This document shows positions 18,601 through 50,060 of a stretch of 64,000 nucleotides of DNA, piece after piece; the first letter of the stretch is position 1, and each line of letters opens with the position of its first letter. A program made the translations under genes and the position numbers. The notes below the pieces were generated by a model, which did no database searches, was not told where the DNA came from, and saw only the letters and a program-made list of their open reading frames with translations. Source of the DNA: Ficedula albicollis (lineage: Eukaryota > Chordata > Aves > Passeriformes > Muscicapidae); assembly GCF_000247815.1 (NCBI RefSeq), contig NC_021686.1, forward strand, positions 10,762,746-10,826,745, in the 5' to 3' direction.

Positions 18601-21600
18601 AGACACCACTTGCTTAGAAATATGAATTATTCAATGCAAGTGCATGTGGTTAGAGATGCAAAAGATTGGATAAGGAAAGAATTCCAGAGTTGTGTTGATT
18701 CCAGCAACTGTAACTTGCACAGTGAAGTGTGGAGTAAATGAAAAGTCAATTTTGTATTTCCAACAGGAATTTTTTCATTGCAATTGTTTTGTTTAGCTCT
18801 CAGCTAAGAGGTTGTATTTGCCCTGAGAACAGCTTATTATTCTTTGTGGCTTTAACAGCAATTTTGAGGGTTTTAACATATATTCCTGTATCTCACTAGA
18901 GCATACAGAAGCTGGTGCTGTAGCTGAAGCCTGAGTGTATCCTTTGTTTTCAGAGAATTGGGAGATGTTTTGAGGATGCTTTAGCAAAGCAAAAACTTGA
19001 CTGAATTTGAGAAATCTCTTCTTACAAAATTATTGTCCCACTTGGCTGTGGTCCTGGCAGAATTATTGGTGGGGGTGGATGACTGAGTTTTAGGAACCAT
19101 ACAGTATAAATTACATTATGTTCTGTTAACGTATTTCCTGGTAAAGCTGTGCAAATGATGGGGTGTTCTTGGGAATAGCTGTAAAATGGTGATAGTAATA
19201 ACTGTCTTAGCTCTTAAATTCCAGTTCTCACAGAAACTGGTTGTGCTTTGGACATGTTTGGAGACAGTCAGCAAAGAGAAAGTGGAGCTTCAAGGGCATC
19301 TTGGTGACAGAGGAGGTGTCACCAGTTAGGGTCTCACTCTTGCCCCAGCATCTCTGGCTCTATTTCCTACATCTGAGCAACCGCTGCAAGGCCGAGAAGA
19401 ACTATTAGCTGAAGGTGGTGAAACAGCAGTCTACAAAGGGTTTGCCCTGAAAAATAAACTTCAGAAGAAAAAGCACCCATGGAAGTACAATTTTGAGTGG
19501 GACAGATAAACCTCATGGGCAGCTCTGCTTTCAGAGCTGAGGGCATGTCTGTGAGACTCAAGCATTTGGGGGTACTTGGGGTTTACGTCTGTCTAGGAAA
19601 TTGGGAACTGTGTGGAGAGTACGACAGGGCTCTTGGCCTGGCTTGGAGGGAGGCATTGCAAAGTAGTAAGAAAACTGAGAAATAGCTGGGATTTAATGAA
19701 AGATTTAATCTGAGAGGTAACCTTTATCTCAGGTATTTATTAGGAGTGAGCAGAGGAGGCAGAAGAGAAAGAAAAATTGGGATGAGGAATAATTGATAAG
19801 CTTATTCCCACCTCTGATTTGTGTGCCTTTCTCAGATTCTGTACATCAGCATTAATTCAGCTTACTATTGATCTCCCTTTTTTTATCCCTGCAAAGTTCT
19901 TCAGCTGATTCCATAACCCTTCAGTGTTTCTCCAAGTTTTACATCTCAGTCAGTTAATTTTTAAACTTGCTTTACTGGTTTTGTGCTACACACAGTCTCA
20001 GTTAAAAAGGAATTTAATGAGTCTTGTTCTTCCAATAGCCCTGTGCTGGGTTTTTCAATGACTTATACTGTTGAGGGCTAAGTCAGCCCTTGCTGATTGT
20101 ATGTGAAAACTTACTGTTGGAGAATTTTTCATTTTGAGTAATTCTTAGGAACGGAGATGAAGCTCTTGTGTTTTGTCAACTTGGTTTTGTTTGCAGTAGG
20201 AGAACTGCCTCTCATTCGTGACTGGTTTCTGCTTAGGTAGGATGGAATTTTGATTCCTGGCTAAGTAGATACTTTAATGACATGTTAATGGACTAATAAA
20301 AATGTTTTTTTCTGGGTGTGTGGTTTTTTGAAGATCTCTTCAAAGTTGTCTACTGTTTGCAACTGGCTACACAAAGCCAAGTTCCAACCCACGAGGAGAT
20401 CATGCCTTGAAAAGAAGCTTTGATTTTTACTGCAGCCTACACATAAGGGCCACAAAAAGGGTTCGTGTATCAACTCTAGTGACTCTGAGAATTGAGGGTT
20501 TTGTAATGAAGCCTTGCTTTAATCTGGTAGTCAAGGTCTGGTTAAGCATGAGTTCAGGCAGAGCCTTCCAGTGTCAGGGCATGAATGCAGGGCCTGGAGT
20601 CGGAGGGGTCTCGGGGGCTTTTGGTTGGTTTGTGTCTCAGATTGCAAATCTCATTGGCACCACAATGCTGAGATCGTTAGTGAAGGCCACTCAGGATGCA
20701 TGTCAGGATGAAATTAGTTCCATACAGCTAATTGGCTTATTTGGCAAATGTAAGGGAAGGCTGTGGGTTTGTTTATCTCTGTGCTCGCAGGCCCTGCAGC
20801 GATTCAGGTTCGGTTACTGAGAAGTTAAAACAGTCTGGATTTATGCATTTCAGTCTCGAGCAGACGAAGAGAAAGACCAAAAGTATTCCTAAAGCAAACA
20901 AAAAAATGATTAGAATAGAAACCTTGGCCTTTGTGGTGACAATTTAAAGTGCAATTTGTGAATAAAGTGGTGTATTTCAGTTCAGTCATGTGGCTAAGCG
21001 TAGAGAAACTGCACTTTTATACACTTCAGACATCTTTCCTTTCCCATAAAACCATTTTTTGTACCCCACCACATATAAATGATTGTCATCCTTAAAAAAA
21101 ACAGACATGTAAAACCTTCATGGGTTGTCTGGTAGTAGAAATAAAACCAGACCTTATCTGCAGTGAAGTCTCATTTAAGGTTATGTGCAGAGAATACAAC
21201 TGTAAGCAGACATTCCTCAGGGTGGTTCAGAAGGGGTGGCTTGTGGTATTTCGAGTGTTTTCCAAAATCCACGGAACTGTTTGGACGAGACATGATTTCA
21301 CATAAGAGATTCAGCAAAGATTTTAATTGTGGTCCATGAACTTTGGGGTGTTGGAGCAGCATGTGATGAATAGCCGATGTTTGCTTTTTTCTCCTTTTTG
21401 GGGGGAGGCTTTTTTCCACTTCTTGCACATTATTTTTGCCGTGCTGCCTTCCCAATACTGTTTTTCAGAATGGTGGGATTTCTGCTGTGGAAACCAGGCT
21501 GTGAGCTGGCACACACAGGGGACTGTCCTGCTGGGGCACCTCCAACACAGGCTACCAAGTTCACAAGTCAAAACCTATGCAGACTTTGAAGCATTAGCAG

Positions 21601-25400: not shown

Positions 25401-25617
25401 CGTTAAATCTATGTGTTGTAACAAGAATTAAAACAGCAAATATAAAGCCAAATTTATCTGTAAATATTCCAATTCCAGATAAAGAAAACAATGCTCACAT
25501 TAAATATTTAGGGTACTTTAATGAATTATGATCAGGTATTATTTTTGCTGATATGATTACCAGAAAGCTTCTTTTTTATGGTTTTAAAATTCCTTTATCT
25601 GCTTTTTTGTTTTGCAG

Positions 25618-40691
<15,074 letters not shown>

Positions 40692-42069
40692 AAAAGCAAC
40701 CAAAGGAAACAGATACTAGCTCATGGACCACCAAATCAAAAGCTAGAAGAAGCTTGCTGTGAACTTCCTGCTAAGCTGTCTGAAACATCTGAACTCTGAC
40801 AACTTAGAGATGGGGCTGTTTCCCTTCCAATGCTGGTGGATTAGGGGGGGAGGGTCGGGGTCGGGGCTTTTCTTGGTGGTTCCCAACTCTATTTTCTCCT
40901 CTTTGTTACAATAACCCCTTCCCTCTGTTTCCATCCCCCCTGACATGAAATGCAGCCAAGTTCAGCATTTGGCTTTGGTTACACAGGATATTCTGCTAGA
41001 TTTGTAACACATATTGTGATAGGGTCAGCGACCTGTGGAGCGTTTTTAATAGGAGAGTCAAAGTGTATTTGAGAATGAGCTTATTTGCTGAGGACTTGAA
41101 ACTAGTAGGTGCATCTAGTTAGTCTGTCTTAAATCAAGCTTGAGCCTTTGTAGAGTCCAGCAGGTGCAGAGAGTCTGACTGGCACCAGAATTTGCATTGC
41201 ACATTTTAAACATCTGTTTAAGTAAACTTCTAGCAGAAAATACCTCCATATGAACACTTAACTGAAAGGTAAAAAAATCCAAGTTCTGCCTTAGCAGGAA
41301 GCTCCCAGTGGAAGCTGTGGCTCACCTTGAGAAAAGTGAAGGAATCTGGGACAGCTTAAACAGTATTGTATGATTTCTTTTTGGTTGTCCTGGCTGAAAT
41401 CTAATTGTTTTGCACGTGAAAACAATTCTTTCCTCCTGCAGAATTGCTTTCCATAGTTTGTTCAGATGTAAGTACCTTCCAGAGAAGCCTTGTAAGGAGG
41501 AGACAGAGGAAGAAAGTCCATTCAATCCCAAAACTGTGATTTCTGTGCCACTGTTCTACCCAAGGTGTGCTTGTGTGACTTTAAATTCTAAAACTCACAT
41601 GGAAGTCACTAAAAGTCAAGTTAACAGTGCAAACTCCTGCTTCAAATTTTTTGGCCTTGGGAAAGGTTTATTTGGAGATTGAGGTGAAAGGGAACTATAG
41701 TGAATACATTCTAGATGTTATGGAAAGCTATTGGAAGAATTTATGACTTCAATTCTGTAGGGATGAAAATTTCTCCAGAGAGCCATATAAGGCTATTTTT
41801 TCCAATATCTGAAACTAATATTAAAAGGTTTGTTCTCTAACACAGGAGAAACAAAAGCAAATCCAATACCTGAATGTCTTAGTTTGAAACACAGGTGTCT
41901 GCTGAGGAAGGCAGGAGCCTCTCTTGTAAAGGAAAATGTAAACCCCTTCCCTCCAAATTACTGTAATTTTGAAATTAAGGGGCTTTCAGGCAAAAGTAGG
42001 AAAAATAGGAATAACAGTTCTTTACTAGTATATATAACAAGGCAATAATGCAGAAACACTGGCTTAAAC

Positions 42070-42548
42070 TGACAGAATCAGGATAGGAGCTGACACCCTG
42101 TTGGCCAGGGGGGTGGTGGCAGTCCGAGTGAGTGGGGGCTGCAGTCTGGAGTGATAGATGTGCTTCTCTCGAGGCAGTGATCCTGTAGAAGGGTCTGGTC
42201 TTCTTCTGAAGGTGGTTCTGTAGCTCTTGTCCTCTGGGAATGCAGTAGGTGAGGGCTACTGTGGTGTTCCAAAACTCAAATTATATCCAGGTAGGAAATG
42301 CTTGGCTCCTGCTGGGCAGAGCATCTCGCAGTGGGATGATGGAATTTTATGAGTCATGCAGTGAGGCTTGATGGCCCATTAACAAAAGAGTATCTCCCTG
42401 GAGGGAGTTATCAAGGGTGTGTCACATAGACAAGGAGGAGAGATAAGAGGAAGGCAGGAGAAGAGATAAGAACACTGCCCCACTTGGTTTAAACAGATGG
42501 TGATAGAATACATGCTTTTGGTTACCTCTTACATTGTAACCTAAGACA
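42070..42548 (-). repeat. 3' LTR of the ERV
   Basis: A direct repeat of 44,540-44,991, alignable from about the ATAGGAGCTGACACCCTG block to the TACATTGTAACCTAA block. It is longer than its partner partly because of an internal imperfect duplication of a GAGATAAGA-containing segment near 42,440-42,465. Possible ends are TG at 42,070 and CA at 42,548 (+ strand); the left end is uncertain by about 10 bp. Confidence 0.85.
42344..42356 (-). promoter_or_regulatory. AP-1 site and TATA-like box in 3' LTR
   Basis: On the - strand TGACTCA is directly joined to CATAAAAT. TGACTCA is the AP-1/TRE consensus and CATAAAAT is a plausible TATA variant. The same arrangement is kept in the other LTR. Activity is inferred only. 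Confidence 0.45.
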
Positions 42549-42776
42549 TTATCTACCCGTTATTCTGTTATCATCTGCATCATACCAAAATCCATACCCT
42601 CTTTAAACTCTGATTTTATATATATACACAATGAAACCTTACACACAGTTCTCACTTATGATTAGGTCTCCTTGTACACAATGGGTTTCCCATTTTTCTG
42701 CATTACCCACCAAGTGTAACCAGGTCCTTGAGCAAAAACAGTCCCACAGATGGCTTTGCTTTTGCCTGAGGTGGGA

Positions 42777-43520
42777 CTAATCCAAACAGTCTTTCCTAAA
42801 ATAACCTTTCATGTGTACCACAGGGAGTTTATCTCCATCCACTGTGTACAATGGTTTGGACTGGGCAGGACCAGCTCCATTAATGGACCCTGGATGGACT
42901 ATCCAGGTGACCTTTGCTAAATTCACTTCCCAATTTTTGAAGGTCCCCCTGCCAAGTGCCTTCAGGGTGATTTTGAGTTCTCTGTTGCACTGTTCAACTT
43001 TGCCAGCAGCTGGTGCATGATAAAGGATATGATATATCCATTCAATGCCATGTTCTCTGGCCCAGGTGTTAGTAAGGTTATTCTTGAAATGAGTCCCGTT
43101 GTCTGACTCCATTCTCTGAAGGGTGCCATGTCTCCACAGGACTTGCTTTTCCAGCCCAAGATGGTGTTGTGGGCCGTGGCATGAGGCACAGGGTAGGTCT
43201 TCAACCATCCAGTGGTGGCTTCCACCATGGTCAGCACATAGTGCTTGCCTTGGTGGGTTTGGGGAAGGGTGATGTAGTCAATTTGCCAGGTTTCCCCATA
43301 CCTGTACTTAGACCATCATCCACCATACCACAGAGGCTTCACCCACTTCGCCTGTCTGATTGCAGTGCAGGTCTCACAGCTGTGGATGGCCCGTGAGATA
43401 CTGCCTATGGTCAAGGTCACCTCTCAGTCACGAGCCCAATGGTACATTGCATCTTGTTCCTGATGACCAGAGGCATCATGGGCCCAGTAAAATGTTCTGT
43501 TTATTTATGTACACACCTTT
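42777..43520 (-). pseudogene. Retroviral pol remnant: integrase, frameshifted and with stop
   Basis: Integrase joins viral DNA to the host chromosome. In order on the - strand: an HHCC zinc-binding region (HDASGHQ and CETC), the first catalytic Asp in WQIDYI near 43,278, the second in SDNGTHF near 43,102, and the catalytic Glu in GKVEQ near 42,994. Exactly 35 residues lie between the second Asp and the Glu, the D,D-35-E signature. It is broken: an in-frame TGA at 43,424-43,426 lies inside the zinc-binding region, and the frame shifts near 43,155 between the first and second Asp. The C-terminal part stays open to the stop at 42,777. Nothing upstream in pol is present, because the ZMAT2 segment takes its place. 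Confidence 0.85.
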
Positions 43521-43599
43521 TTTTCAATTGACCAGTCATGGGGAAAAATTTCTCCCCTACCCTAAAGATACTGAAATTACGGCATAAAGCACAAAGAAA

Positions 43600-43883
43600 A
43601 GGAACCAGGCCACCTGTGCAGAAAGACTGTACTTTATTGACAAAAGAAAATGTCCCCAACAGAGCACTTCCCTACACACACACAGCCACAGAGCGGCTGA
43701 GCAGCCAGATCCGGTACACAGAAGGAGAAGGGAAACTAATGAGGGGCAGAGCTTGATCTGCAGCACAGATAGAGCATAGAATAGCTTTTCAGCTCTTCCA
43801 GCCAACTTCTACTGGGAAGTCCTCTATAAAGTCTTTGAATAGTTATCTGGAGTTCTCTGTAGAGAAAGAGAATGCGGAGCTGC
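43600..43883 (-). other. ZMAT2: ZMAT2-derived 3' UTR and junction to pol remnant
   Basis: Non-coding sequence follows the retrocopy stop and contains AATAAA on the - strand at 43,638-43,633. No poly(A) tract follows it. The sequence runs on and becomes recognisably retroviral by about 43,500. The join lies somewhere between about 43,615 and 43,520 and cannot be placed exactly without the parental mRNA. Confidence 0.6.
43633..43638 (-). terminator. Polyadenylation signal of the captured ZMAT2 UTR
   Basis: AATAAA on the - strand about 245 bases after the ZMAT2 stop. It probably is the signal of the parental mRNA. If still used it would end an LTR-driven ZMAT2 transcript before the pol remnant. 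Confidence 0.55.
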
Positions 43884-44483
43884 TCAGTGATTCTTTTTGG
43901 TTGAGCTGAAACCAGAGAAACCCATCACAGCTGCCATTTCATGGTTTTCTTCGAAGGTCAAATCTTCCTCCACCTGCCTCTTCTTCTCTCTCTGCATCTT
44001 CTTCTTGTAGGCTTTGACCTTCTCCTCCTCCTCACGGAGTTCCTTCATCCTCTCCTCAAAGTCATACTCCTTCTTCTTCTCCTGCATCTTCTTCTTATTC
44101 ACCTCAAAGCGTTTCTTCACCTGCTCCAGTGTAGAGCGCTCCACCCGCATGGACATGCCCAGATTCCTCTGGTGTTTTTTGCCATTGATGTGATCCAAGA
44201 AGTTAATGGAATCTTTCACCACACAGTCACATATGTTACAGTAATACCCTCCCATCTCTGACTGAGGGGTAGTTTTGGTGATGAAAATGGTTTTGCCCAG
44301 CTTGGATTCCAGGTCCACTTTGTAGCCTCGGTGCTGCAGAAGTTCCCTTTTGACAGGCTGAGCTGGTTTGCCGTGTTTCTTTTCTCTCTCCTCTGCGAGC
44401 CACTTCTCTGCGAGTTTCTCGTATTCATCCTTGTCCCATTTCCGGCGGAAGTCCAGGTTCTTGGTGCCGCTGCCTGACGCCAT
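43884..44483 (-). CDS. ZMAT2: Intronless ZMAT2 retrocopy inside the ERV, ORF intact
   Basis: ZMAT2 is the vertebrate homologue of yeast Snu23, a nuclear C2H2 zinc-finger protein of the spliceosomal tri-snRNP/B complex. The ORF is 199 codons, the same length as ZMAT2, and reads from [20 protein letters not shown] to a [14 protein letters not shown] C-terminus. The zinc finger is complete: Cys82, Cys85, His98, His104 (C-x2-C-x12-H-x5-H). A long charged helical stretch follows at about 112-175. The normal gene has several introns and this copy has none, so it is a retrocopy. About 20 residues differ from ZMAT2 as I recall it, including Arg28 to Trp and Arg50 to Gln (CpG-decay-like), Asp53 to Gly and Val67 to Phe. 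That is many for such a conserved protein and suggests relaxed constraint. The start context (GCC ATG G) is good, but an upstream ATG precedes it. Expression is unknown; it may be a decaying pseudogene with its frame still open. Confidence 0.88.
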
Positions 44484-44552
44484 GGCGAGTTGAGGGCCAA
44501 GTCAGCTGGTGCCGCTGCCTGACGCCATGGCGAGCTGAGGGCAAAGTCAGCA
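44463..44552 (-). repeat. 45-bp tandem duplication across the ZMAT2 start region
   Basis: Two units, 44,463-44,507 and 44,508-44,552, differ at only a few positions. Each holds GCCATGGCGTCAGGCAGCGG on the - strand, i.e. the start codon and first codons of ZMAT2, plus part of its leader. The outer ATG (44,528-44,526) opens an eight-codon ORF ending in TGA at 44,504-44,502, before the main ATG at 44,483. Confidence 0.9.
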
Positions 44553-44991
44553 TAGGAGCTGACACCCTGTTGGCCAGGGGGGTGGTGGCAGTCCGAGTGA
44601 GTGGGGACTGCAGTCCTGAAGTGATAGATGTGATTCTCTTGAGGCAGTGATCCTGCCTGGTCTTTCTCTGAAGGTCCAGCGGTGGTTCTGTAACTCCTCT
44701 GGGAATGCAGTAGGTGAGGGCTACTGTGGTGTTCCAAAACTCAGATTATATCCAGGTAGGAAATGCTTGGCTCCTCCTGCTGGGCGGAGCATCTCACAAT
44801 GGGATGATGGAATTTTATGAGTCATGCAGTGAGGCTTGATGGCCCATTAACAGAAGATTATCTCCCCGGAGGGAGTTATCAGGGGTGTGTCATATAGAAA
44901 AGGAGAAGAGATAAGAACACTGCCCCACTTGGTTTAAACAGATGGTGATAGAATACATACTTTTGGTTACATCTTACATTGTAACCTAACA
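44540..44991 (-). repeat. 5' LTR of the ERV
   Basis: The second copy of the LTR. Its inner boundary is unclear because identity with the 3' LTR is strong only up to about 44,552 and then falls off within the ZMAT2 leader. The outer end is near the CA at 44,990-44,991. In the direction of the ERV it lies immediately before the ZMAT2 start codons, so it is placed to act as their promoter. Confidence 0.82.
44812..44824 (-). promoter_or_regulatory. AP-1 site and TATA-like box in 5' LTR
   Basis: Same TGACTCA plus CATAAAAT arrangement as in the 3' LTR, about 330 bp upstream of the ZMAT2 copy start codon on the - strand. If the LTR is active, transcription would start some 25-30 bp further along and read through the ZMAT2 copy. 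Inference from motif and position. Confidence 0.45.
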
Positions 44992-45360
44992 CTGAATCAC
45001 TAAAACTTTTCGCACTTGCACACCAAGATGAGGCAGTATTTTAACAAATAACATGGCTTCAGAGAGACCCAGTTATCTATCAAATATGTCTAAACTTAAG
45101 CAGACTTGCTTGCATAGGATTTTTTTTTTCTTTGGCAAGCCTGATTTTTAGAGAGATTCATTACTGAAACACTTAACAGATGTTAGGTTTATGGAATAAT
45201 GCATTGAAATTCAGCTGTGGGTAAGAGACTGTCCTTAGGAGAAGTCTACAGGAATACTTCTATTTTGTTTTTTTTTTTTTCTTAATTGAGTTTGGTAATA
45301 GCTTTAAACTGTGATAAGACAGAAAGTAGACACTTGTCAAAACTCTGGCATCTTTCTCTG

Positions 45361-48348: not shown

Positions 48349-50060
<1,712 letters not shown>

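What the first reader, a model, noticed from the sequence alone, without database searches (positions are those of the whole stretch)
42070..44991. A host gene (ZMAT2) captured whole between the LTRs of an endogenous retrovirus
On one strand there is LTR, complete intronless 199-codon ZMAT2, retroviral integrase, LTR. Ordinary retrocopies made by LINE machinery end in poly(A) with short target duplications; this one sits inside an LTR-bounded element, replaces gag and most of pol, and has no poly(A). The structure resembles oncogene transduction or LTR-mediated retroposition by template switching. Seen: LTR direct repeats, intact ORF with all four zinc ligands, D,D-35-E integrase. Inferred: that capture happened before integration.
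Basis: partly seen in the sequence, partly recalled or inferred. Interest (0 to 1): 0.88.

Follow-up and report, generated by a model that had tools for sequence, protein, structure and literature searches.

The report
Flycatcher ZMAT2 copy made by retrovirus
In a songbird genome, a spliced copy of the host gene ZMAT2 sits inside a retrovirus-like element, most likely because viral reverse transcriptase jumped from virus RNA to the host mRNA and back; the gene copy was published in 2020, but its viral packaging was not mentioned there.

Summary
On the minus strand the element runs from 44,991 to 41,875, flanked by an exact 5-bp duplication (plus-strand CTGAA). Order: truncated 5' LTR (440 nt), ZMAT2 5'UTR with a 45-nt tandem repeat, intact 199-codon ZMAT2, 404 nt of ZMAT2 3'UTR, broken integrase remnant, complete 674-nt 3' LTR. 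The parental gene (exons 2-6 found) lies on contig C210. At the 3' join, parent 3'UTR and ERV pol share 7-9 bases. The 5' join lies inside the LTR, at or near a CTGACT motif, so the LTR end and primer-binding site are missing; parent exon 1 is not in the assembly part examined, so that join is seen from one side only. There is no poly(A), and a genome search found no other ZMAT2 copy.

Best explanation: a single LTR-mediated retroposition by template switching, unable to move again in this form, rather than a transducing virus lineage. The locus lies beside SMURF1 and matches published expressed flycatcher Zmat2-2 (PMC7255616; 173/193 residues shared with the parent). That paper's main text does not contain the words LTR or retrovir-. 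Whether the intact ORF is under selection is unresolved, because the clocks disagree. New member of a known kind.

The parts
41870..41874 (.). target site duplication, left copy (plus CTGAA)
   Evidence: exact match to 44992-44996, directly outside TG...CA ends
41875..42548 (-). complete 3' LTR, 674 nt, TGTCTTAG...CTAAGACA
   Evidence: relatives L022 and L029 align to its last base
42549..43486 (-). ERV pol remnant: integrase and region to the 3' LTR; stop codons and at least one frame change
   Evidence: 45 further matching rows (40 of 241 candidates scored), 22 of them starting exactly at 43486; Pfam rve halves in two frames, both below the curated cut-off; nearest solved integrases include foamy virus
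43480..43486 (-). 3' join, TGGGCCC (7-9 bases shared by parent and the 7 ERV relatives compared)
43480..43883 (-). ZMAT2 3'UTR, 404 nt, no poly(A); lacks 222 nt present in the parent
43884..44483 (-). intact intronless ZMAT2 coding region, 199 codons
   Evidence: exons 2-6 colinear with parent C210, no indel, 20 of 193 residues changed
44462..44506 (-). 45-nt repeat, inner copy: 5'UTR plus first codons
   Evidence: family D4 (the two copies 96% alike)
44507..44551 (-). 45-nt repeat, outer copy; carries an upstream ATG (44528) whose frame stops after 8 codons
   Evidence: the eight-codon reading is my own from the sequence
44545..44550 (-). 5' join region: CTGACT, present in the ZMAT2 5'UTR repeat and in 9 of 12 family LTRs matched; the window's own 3' LTR reads CTGATT
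   Evidence: parent exon 1 not available to check the ZMAT2 side
44552..44991 (-). truncated 5' LTR, 440 nt; keeps TATAA (44750), lacks about the last 200 nt, no primer-binding site follows
   Evidence: absence of a primer-binding site by reading the sequence between LTR and ORF
44992..44996 (.). target site duplication, right copy (plus CTGAA)
25611..40691 (+). SMURF1 gene (matched from residue 17 to the stop codon), convergent neighbour; stop codon about 1.2 kb before the element
   Evidence: tblastn with human SMURF1; PDB 9fsj SMURF1 best hit for one exon; stop codon

Best explanation
This is one LTR-mediated retroposition event by an endogenous retrovirus, probably class III (ERVL-like). 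A spliced ZMAT2 mRNA was reverse-transcribed in the same complex as ERV genomic RNA (inferred). Minus-strand synthesis copied the 3' LTR and the integrase end of pol, then switched at (AA)TGGGCCC into the ZMAT2 3'UTR. It ran to the 5' end of the mRNA, skipping 222 nt and repeating 45 nt on the way, unless those arose later. It then switched, at or near CTGACT, into LTR sequence downstream of the presumed start site (the R region, inferred from the TATA box), so that R-R pairing or microhomology replaced the normal primer-binding-site transfer (inferred). Integrase inserted the product with a 5-bp duplication 1.2 kb past the SMURF1 stop codon, antisense to SMURF1. Lacking the LTR end and a primer-binding site at the 5' side, it could not move again in this form. 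The truncated 5' LTR keeps a TATA box and probably drives the published low-level transcription (inferred).
For: Exact 5-bp duplication at TG/CA ends. The LTR pair (21 differences in 433 sites) is far closer to each other than to the best-scoring other copy (77%). The parent on C210 has introns, the copy has none. 3' join: parent and ERV share 7-9 bases in 7 of 7 relatives compared (7 chosen from the 19 of 29 that showed the motif); random joins reach 7 or more bases in 0.046%, 8 in 0.02% and 9 in 0.0075% of 200,000 trials. The 5' join lies inside the LTR. No poly(A), and no repeated bases at the two inner edges by eye. ZMAT2 matches only itself and the parent: 7 rows, all 5 candidates scored.
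Against: Parent exon 1 is absent from the part of C210 examined; a 799-nt poly(G) run lies in a CpG-rich stretch upstream of exon 2. The 5' switch is therefore seen only on the LTR side, and CTGACT is not in the window's own 3' LTR (CTGATT) nor in 3 of 12 family loci, so microhomology there is likely but unproven. Whether the 45-nt repeat starts at the mRNA cap is unknown. The LTR pair (K 0.05), 3'UTR against parent (0.11) and synonymous sites against parent (0.25) give clashing ages. A strict scan of 30 loci found no other family LTR with an exact 5-bp duplication; L022 has 4 of 5. No empty orthologous site could be examined, because no other bird genome is held.
Confidence: 0.85

Rival explanations
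1. Transduction: ZMAT2 was captured earlier by an ERV lineage that replicated with it, and this is one late copy.
For: Synonymous divergence from the parent (0.25) and UTR divergence (0.11) exceed LTR-LTR divergence (0.05), as if the gene left the parent before this insertion.
Against: No second ZMAT2-bearing copy in the genome search (DNA search only, the protein search did not complete). The 5' side has no LTR end or primer-binding site. Much of the synonymous change may belong to the parent branch, which is untested for lack of an outgroup.
Confidence: 0.06
2. Two steps: an ordinary provirus, later hit by a LINE-type ZMAT2 retrocopy and internal deletions.
For: Internal gag-pol is missing (sequence), so deletions are conceivable.
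Against: No poly(A) and no repeated bases at the inner edges; the 3' join has 7-9 bases shared by mRNA and ERV. CR1, the main chicken LINE, seems to have generated a negligible number of retrocopies (PMC3136929, passages).
Confidence: 0.05
3. Assembly error joining an ERV to a separate retrocopy.
For: This assembly has artefact-like homopolymer runs (window 48349-49369).
Against: No such run inside the element; a matching duplication across the whole element and biologically sensible joins. The copy beside SMURF1 is described with RNA-seq (PMC7255616), though apparently from the same assembly line.
Confidence: 0.02

Closest known systems
Flycatcher Zmat2-2 (Ficedula albicollis), PMC7255616
   Same: Same locus by every feature I could compare: adjacent to SMURF1, 199 codons beginning MASGSG, one zinc-finger change, 173/193 residues shared with the parent. 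Reported as expressed at 2.5-38% of Zmat2-1.
   Different: The paper describes a retro-transposed mRNA; 'ltr' and 'retrovir' have 0 occurrences in its main text. The ERV structure, target duplication and joins are added here. Its alignment figures could not be seen, so residue-by-residue identity is not shown.
LTR-mediated retroposition (Tan et al. 2016, Genome Research; not held; known here through passages of PMC5408686 and PMC8854603)
   Same: Host mRNA inserted into an LTR element's cDNA by template switching at microsimilarities; reported in chicken, and for a parrot W-linked DYNLRB1 retrogene.
   Different: Here the 5' switch falls inside the LTR, so no primer-binding site or leader remains, and the start of the ZMAT2 sequence is partly duplicated. 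Whether other published cases share this was not checked.
Gene capture by crocodilian ERVs (KIT-ligand, nectin3), PMC4299795 (passages)
   Same: Host mRNA carried by an ERV with an intact reading frame.
   Different: Nectin3 was found in several insertions and in two alligator species; KIT-ligand in crocodile and gavial. Here one copy was found.
Mammalian ZMAT2 pseudogenes, PMC6995233 (passages)
   Same: Intronless copies; a microbat copy and two of four dolphin copies keep a 199-codon ORF.
   Different: Described as retro-transposed mRNAs, reported as not transcribed (per PMC7255616); no LTR structure seen in the passages.

Membership tests
LTR-mediated retroposition | intronless copy of a host gene between LTRs of one element | tested here: met
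LTR-mediated retroposition | short target duplication directly outside the LTRs | tested here: met
   CTGAA, 5 of 5
LTR-mediated retroposition | microhomology at the 3' gene-element join | tested here: met
   7-9 bases in 7 of 7 relatives compared
LTR-mediated retroposition | microhomology at the 5' gene-element join | tested here: inconclusive
   CTGACT in 9 of 12 family loci matched, not in the own 3' LTR; parent exon 1 missing
LTR-mediated retroposition | no poly(A) tail of the copy | tested here: met
Oncogene-type retroviral transduction | mobilisable genome with primer-binding site after a full 5' LTR | tested here: not met
   5' LTR lacks about 200 nt; ZMAT2 follows directly
Oncogene-type retroviral transduction | further proviruses with the same joins | tested here: not met
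   7 matches, all the window itself or the parent; DNA search of this genome only
LINE/CR1 retrocopy | poly(A) or CR1-like end and its own target duplication | tested here: not met
   no poly(A); inner edges share no run of bases by eye; a CR1-like end was not searched for
Class III (ERVL-like) ERV | integrase nearest to spumaviruses | tested here: inconclusive
   of the 8 best rows (E 6e-5 to 1.5e-3) 4 are or include the name PFV integrase and 4 only 'integrase'; avian sarcoma virus rows follow at E 0.012 or more. The ERVL name is recalled
Class III (ERVL-like) ERV | reverse transcriptase phylogeny | not testable with these tools
   the element has no reverse transcriptase region

The most novel reading that the evidence does not exclude
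A retroviral LTR and a template-switch product together founded a working second ZMAT2 gene, a splicing factor paralogue under purifying selection and transcribed from the truncated LTR, in the flycatcher lineage.
Probability: 0.18. Interest if true: 0.55.

Novelty: new member of a known kind. Interest (0 to 1): 0.38.

Why it matters
Chicken has few retrocopies, because its main LINE (CR1) seems to make hardly any (PMC3136929, passages), so in birds LTR elements are a likely route to new intronless genes. This locus shows one switch point at base level and the other from its LTR side, explains the origin of a published expressed retrocopy, and suggests why it is transcribed: it arrived with an LTR promoter. 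The 5' join without a primer-binding site is a concrete, testable example of how reverse transcription may finish without the normal second strand transfer.

Tried and rejected
Searches that found nothing: Rfam on the whole window, 0 matches. The first Pfam scan of the 143-aa integrase ORF, 0 families at 0.001; longer pieces gave the rve halves. Viral contigs for the integrase piece, ZMAT2 and two LTR patterns, no relatives. Genome contigs for an LTR pattern, 0. An RNA fold of the 5' join region was run (z -2.8) and not used.

Own-genome searches did not complete many times; three were answered (34, 58, 60). The exon-1 search of the genome did not complete. I looked instead in C210 1-33,999 and found no exon 1. 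Tan et al. 2016 is not held.

Rejected readings: target duplications placed near 42,075 (6-bp GAATCA or 4-bp TCAG). I dropped them once other LTR copies ran past that point; I then spotted CTGAA by looking for a match to the right flank, and one search confirmed that end from relatives. Patchwise LTR gene conversion as the reason for a young LTR age: the longest identical run is 60, P 0.71, so no sign of it, though whole-LTR conversion is not excluded.

Selection on the copy: omega depends on the assumed clock, from 0.35 to 1.8. The lack of any indel in 600 nt is unlikely under neutrality on the youngest clock: P 0.004 with the LTR gap rate, 0.03 with the UTR gap rate, 0.016 and 0.075 if a quarter keep frame. 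But gap counts in the LTR pair vary with the alignment (6, 7, 8); with 6 the LTR-based P is 0.016, or 0.046. Intact 199-codon ZMAT2 pseudogenes are also reported in microbat and dolphin (passages). Inconclusive.

Mended on checking: the 5' microhomology claim was weakened, the SMURF1 stop codon was checked, and confidence lowered from 0.87 to 0.85 and the novel case from 0.20 to 0.18 for these reasons and the pseudogenes; the two larger rivals were raised by 0.01 each.
Full report
Where it is. The window is a stretch of contig C22 of a genome of 1,118,169,887 bases in 21,385 contigs. I take it to be collared flycatcher for three reasons. SMURF1 lies on the plus strand, matched from residue 17 at 25.6 kb to its stop codon at 40,691. 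A 199-codon ZMAT2 copy lies next to it. The copy and its parent in this genome share 173 of 193 residues (20 differences), exactly the figure published for flycatcher Zmat2-1 and Zmat2-2, where Zmat2-2 is said to be adjacent to Smurf1 (PMC7255616, section 11). Of that paper I read passages including part of the abstract, and sections 11, 12 and 21; its figures are not held.

What the element is. Read on the minus strand, ZMAT2 (43,884-44,483) is intact, with all four zinc ligands. In a comparison with 30 fetched loci (two of them the window itself), the window's 3' LTR is a 674-nt unit, 41,875-42,548, and two other family copies, L022 and L029, align to its last base; the rest align only over part of it. 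With that end the element has TG...CA termini and an exact CTGAA duplication on both sides. I found CTGAA by looking for it, so its bare chance of 1 in 1,024 should not be taken at face value; the end itself rests on L022 and L029. A strict scan for exact 5-bp duplications around other family LTRs in these loci found none; L022 has 4 of 5 bases. The 5' LTR starts at its TG (44,991) but stops after 440 nt and runs straight into ZMAT2. The last 200 nt or so of the LTR and any primer-binding site are absent.

The parent and the copy. The genome search with the ZMAT2 part gave 7 matches, all 5 candidates scored: the window itself and six stretches of contig C210. Those are exons 2-6 with splice sites plus a 3'UTR in two pieces. 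The copy has no introns. It lacks 222 nt of parental 3'UTR without splice signals at the edges, so this is a skip, a later deletion or an insertion in the parent, not a spliced intron. Parent exon 1 was not found in C210 1-33,999. A 799-nt run of G stands at 20,466-21,264 in a CpG-rich stretch, where exon 1 might be expected. The published study also failed to find exon 1 in flycatcher Zmat2-1.

The joins. At the 3' join the parent reads CTAATGGGCCC and then its own sequence. The element reads TTACTGGGCCC and then pol. Nineteen of 29 ERV relatives show GGGCCC followed by the same pol sequence; the other ten did not match the strict pattern or do not reach that far. I compared 7 of those 19 with the parent: they share 7, 8, 8, 9, 9, 9 and 9 bases. 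In 200,000 random joins, 7 or more occurred in 0.046% and 8 or more in 0.02%. At the 5' join 12 of 28 family loci matched my pattern, and 9 of those 12 read CTGACT; the window's own 3' LTR reads TATC-CTGATT-CTG and the element TATG-CTGACT-TTG, with ZMAT2 5'UTR following. Microhomology there is likely but not proven. The 45-nt unit that begins there is repeated once. One reading is that reverse transcriptase reached the mRNA end, fell back 45 nt and ran to the end again; a later tandem duplication is equally possible. There is no poly(A), and the two inner edges share no run of bases by eye.

The viral part. What remains of pol is the integrase and the sequence to the LTR. Its core domain is split between two frames (Pfam rve, two halves at E 0.0016 and 3.6e-5, both below the curated cut-off), and there are stop codons. 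The closest solved integrases include a foamy virus: of the 8 best rows, 4 bear the name PFV integrase and 4 only integrase, at E 6e-5 to 1.5e-3. That fits class III, but weakly. Gag, protease and reverse transcriptase regions are absent: the interval between the LTRs is filled by ZMAT2 and integrase. The genome search gave 45 further matching rows for this stretch from 40 scored of 241 candidates, the best-scoring at 80% and none above 84% identity; 22 of the 45 start exactly where ZMAT2 sequence ends.

How it probably arose and works. The order LTR-ZMAT2-integrase-LTR, with microhomology at the 3' join, an LTR-internal 5' join and a normal integration footprint, fits one round of reverse transcription with switches between ERV RNA and a co-packaged ZMAT2 mRNA. 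The shown steps are the ends, the joins, the missing parts and the single copy found. The inferred steps are co-packaging, the order of switches, the position of R, and how the 5' LTR was completed without a primer-binding site. If TATAA at position 242 of the 5' LTR is used, transcripts would start in the LTR and run through ZMAT2, which would explain the published expression. The LTR-ZMAT2 join and the repeat place two ATGs ahead of the real one, which may reduce translation.

Is the copy under selection? Not settled. Against the parent there are 45 differences in 582 nt, 20 nonsynonymous and 25 synonymous, no indel; dN 0.044, dS 0.25. The LTR pair differs at 21 of 433 sites with 8 gaps (K 0.05); the 3'UTR differs from the parent at 40 of 396 with 10 gaps (K 0.11). 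At a recalled rate of about 2.3e-9 per site per year the LTR pair gives roughly 11 million years, a minimum if LTRs were converted. With equal branch lengths the copy's omega is 0.46 (2dlnL 4.9); with a parent branch half, twice or three times as long as the copy's it is 0.35, 0.68 and 0.90; with the copy branch set by the LTR clock it is 1.8 (2dlnL 4.4 in the other direction). Absence of frame-breaking indels is mildly surprising under neutrality, yet intact 199-codon ZMAT2 pseudogenes are reported in microbat and dolphin (PMC6995233, passages). The published view, an expressed gene on its way to becoming a pseudogene, remains possible.

Known or new. LTR-mediated retroposition is a described process, including in chicken and a parrot (passages of PMC5408686 and PMC8854603). 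ERV gene capture with later multiplication is described in crocodilians (passages of PMC4299795). The ZMAT2 copy is published. What I did not find in print is the ERV nature of this locus: 'ltr' and 'retrovir' have 0 occurrences in the main text of PMC7255616, and no title in the listings of searches (20 of 23 shown; 20 of 85 shown), 53, 76 and 96 points to it; its supplements could not be read. The locus is therefore a new, well-resolved member of a known kind, with an unusual 5' join.

Noticed in passing
window 48349-49369: A perfect run of 1,021 C, probably an assembly or gap-filling artefact; runs of G (85, 152 and 799) occur in the part of contig C210 examined (L070, L038).
   Followed up: partly
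L038 (C210:20466-21264): The 799-G run sits in a CpG-rich stretch upstream of ZMAT2 exon 2, where parental exon 1 might be expected; this may be why exon 1 was not found in flycatcher.
   Followed up: partly
L016 and L017 (C27:1477512 and C27:1479947): Two near-identical LTR copies with identical 40-nt upstream flanks 2.4 kb apart, which looks like a tandem duplication of one LTR locus.
   Followed up: no
L039 (C210:30385-30606): 222 nt of parental ZMAT2 3'UTR absent from the copy, without splice signals; could be a reverse-transcription skip, a later deletion, or an insertion in the parent.
   Followed up: partly
window 44507-44553: The LTR join and the 45-nt repeat create upstream ATGs (44553, 44528) before the main start; the second is in frame but stops after 8 codons.
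   Followed up: partly
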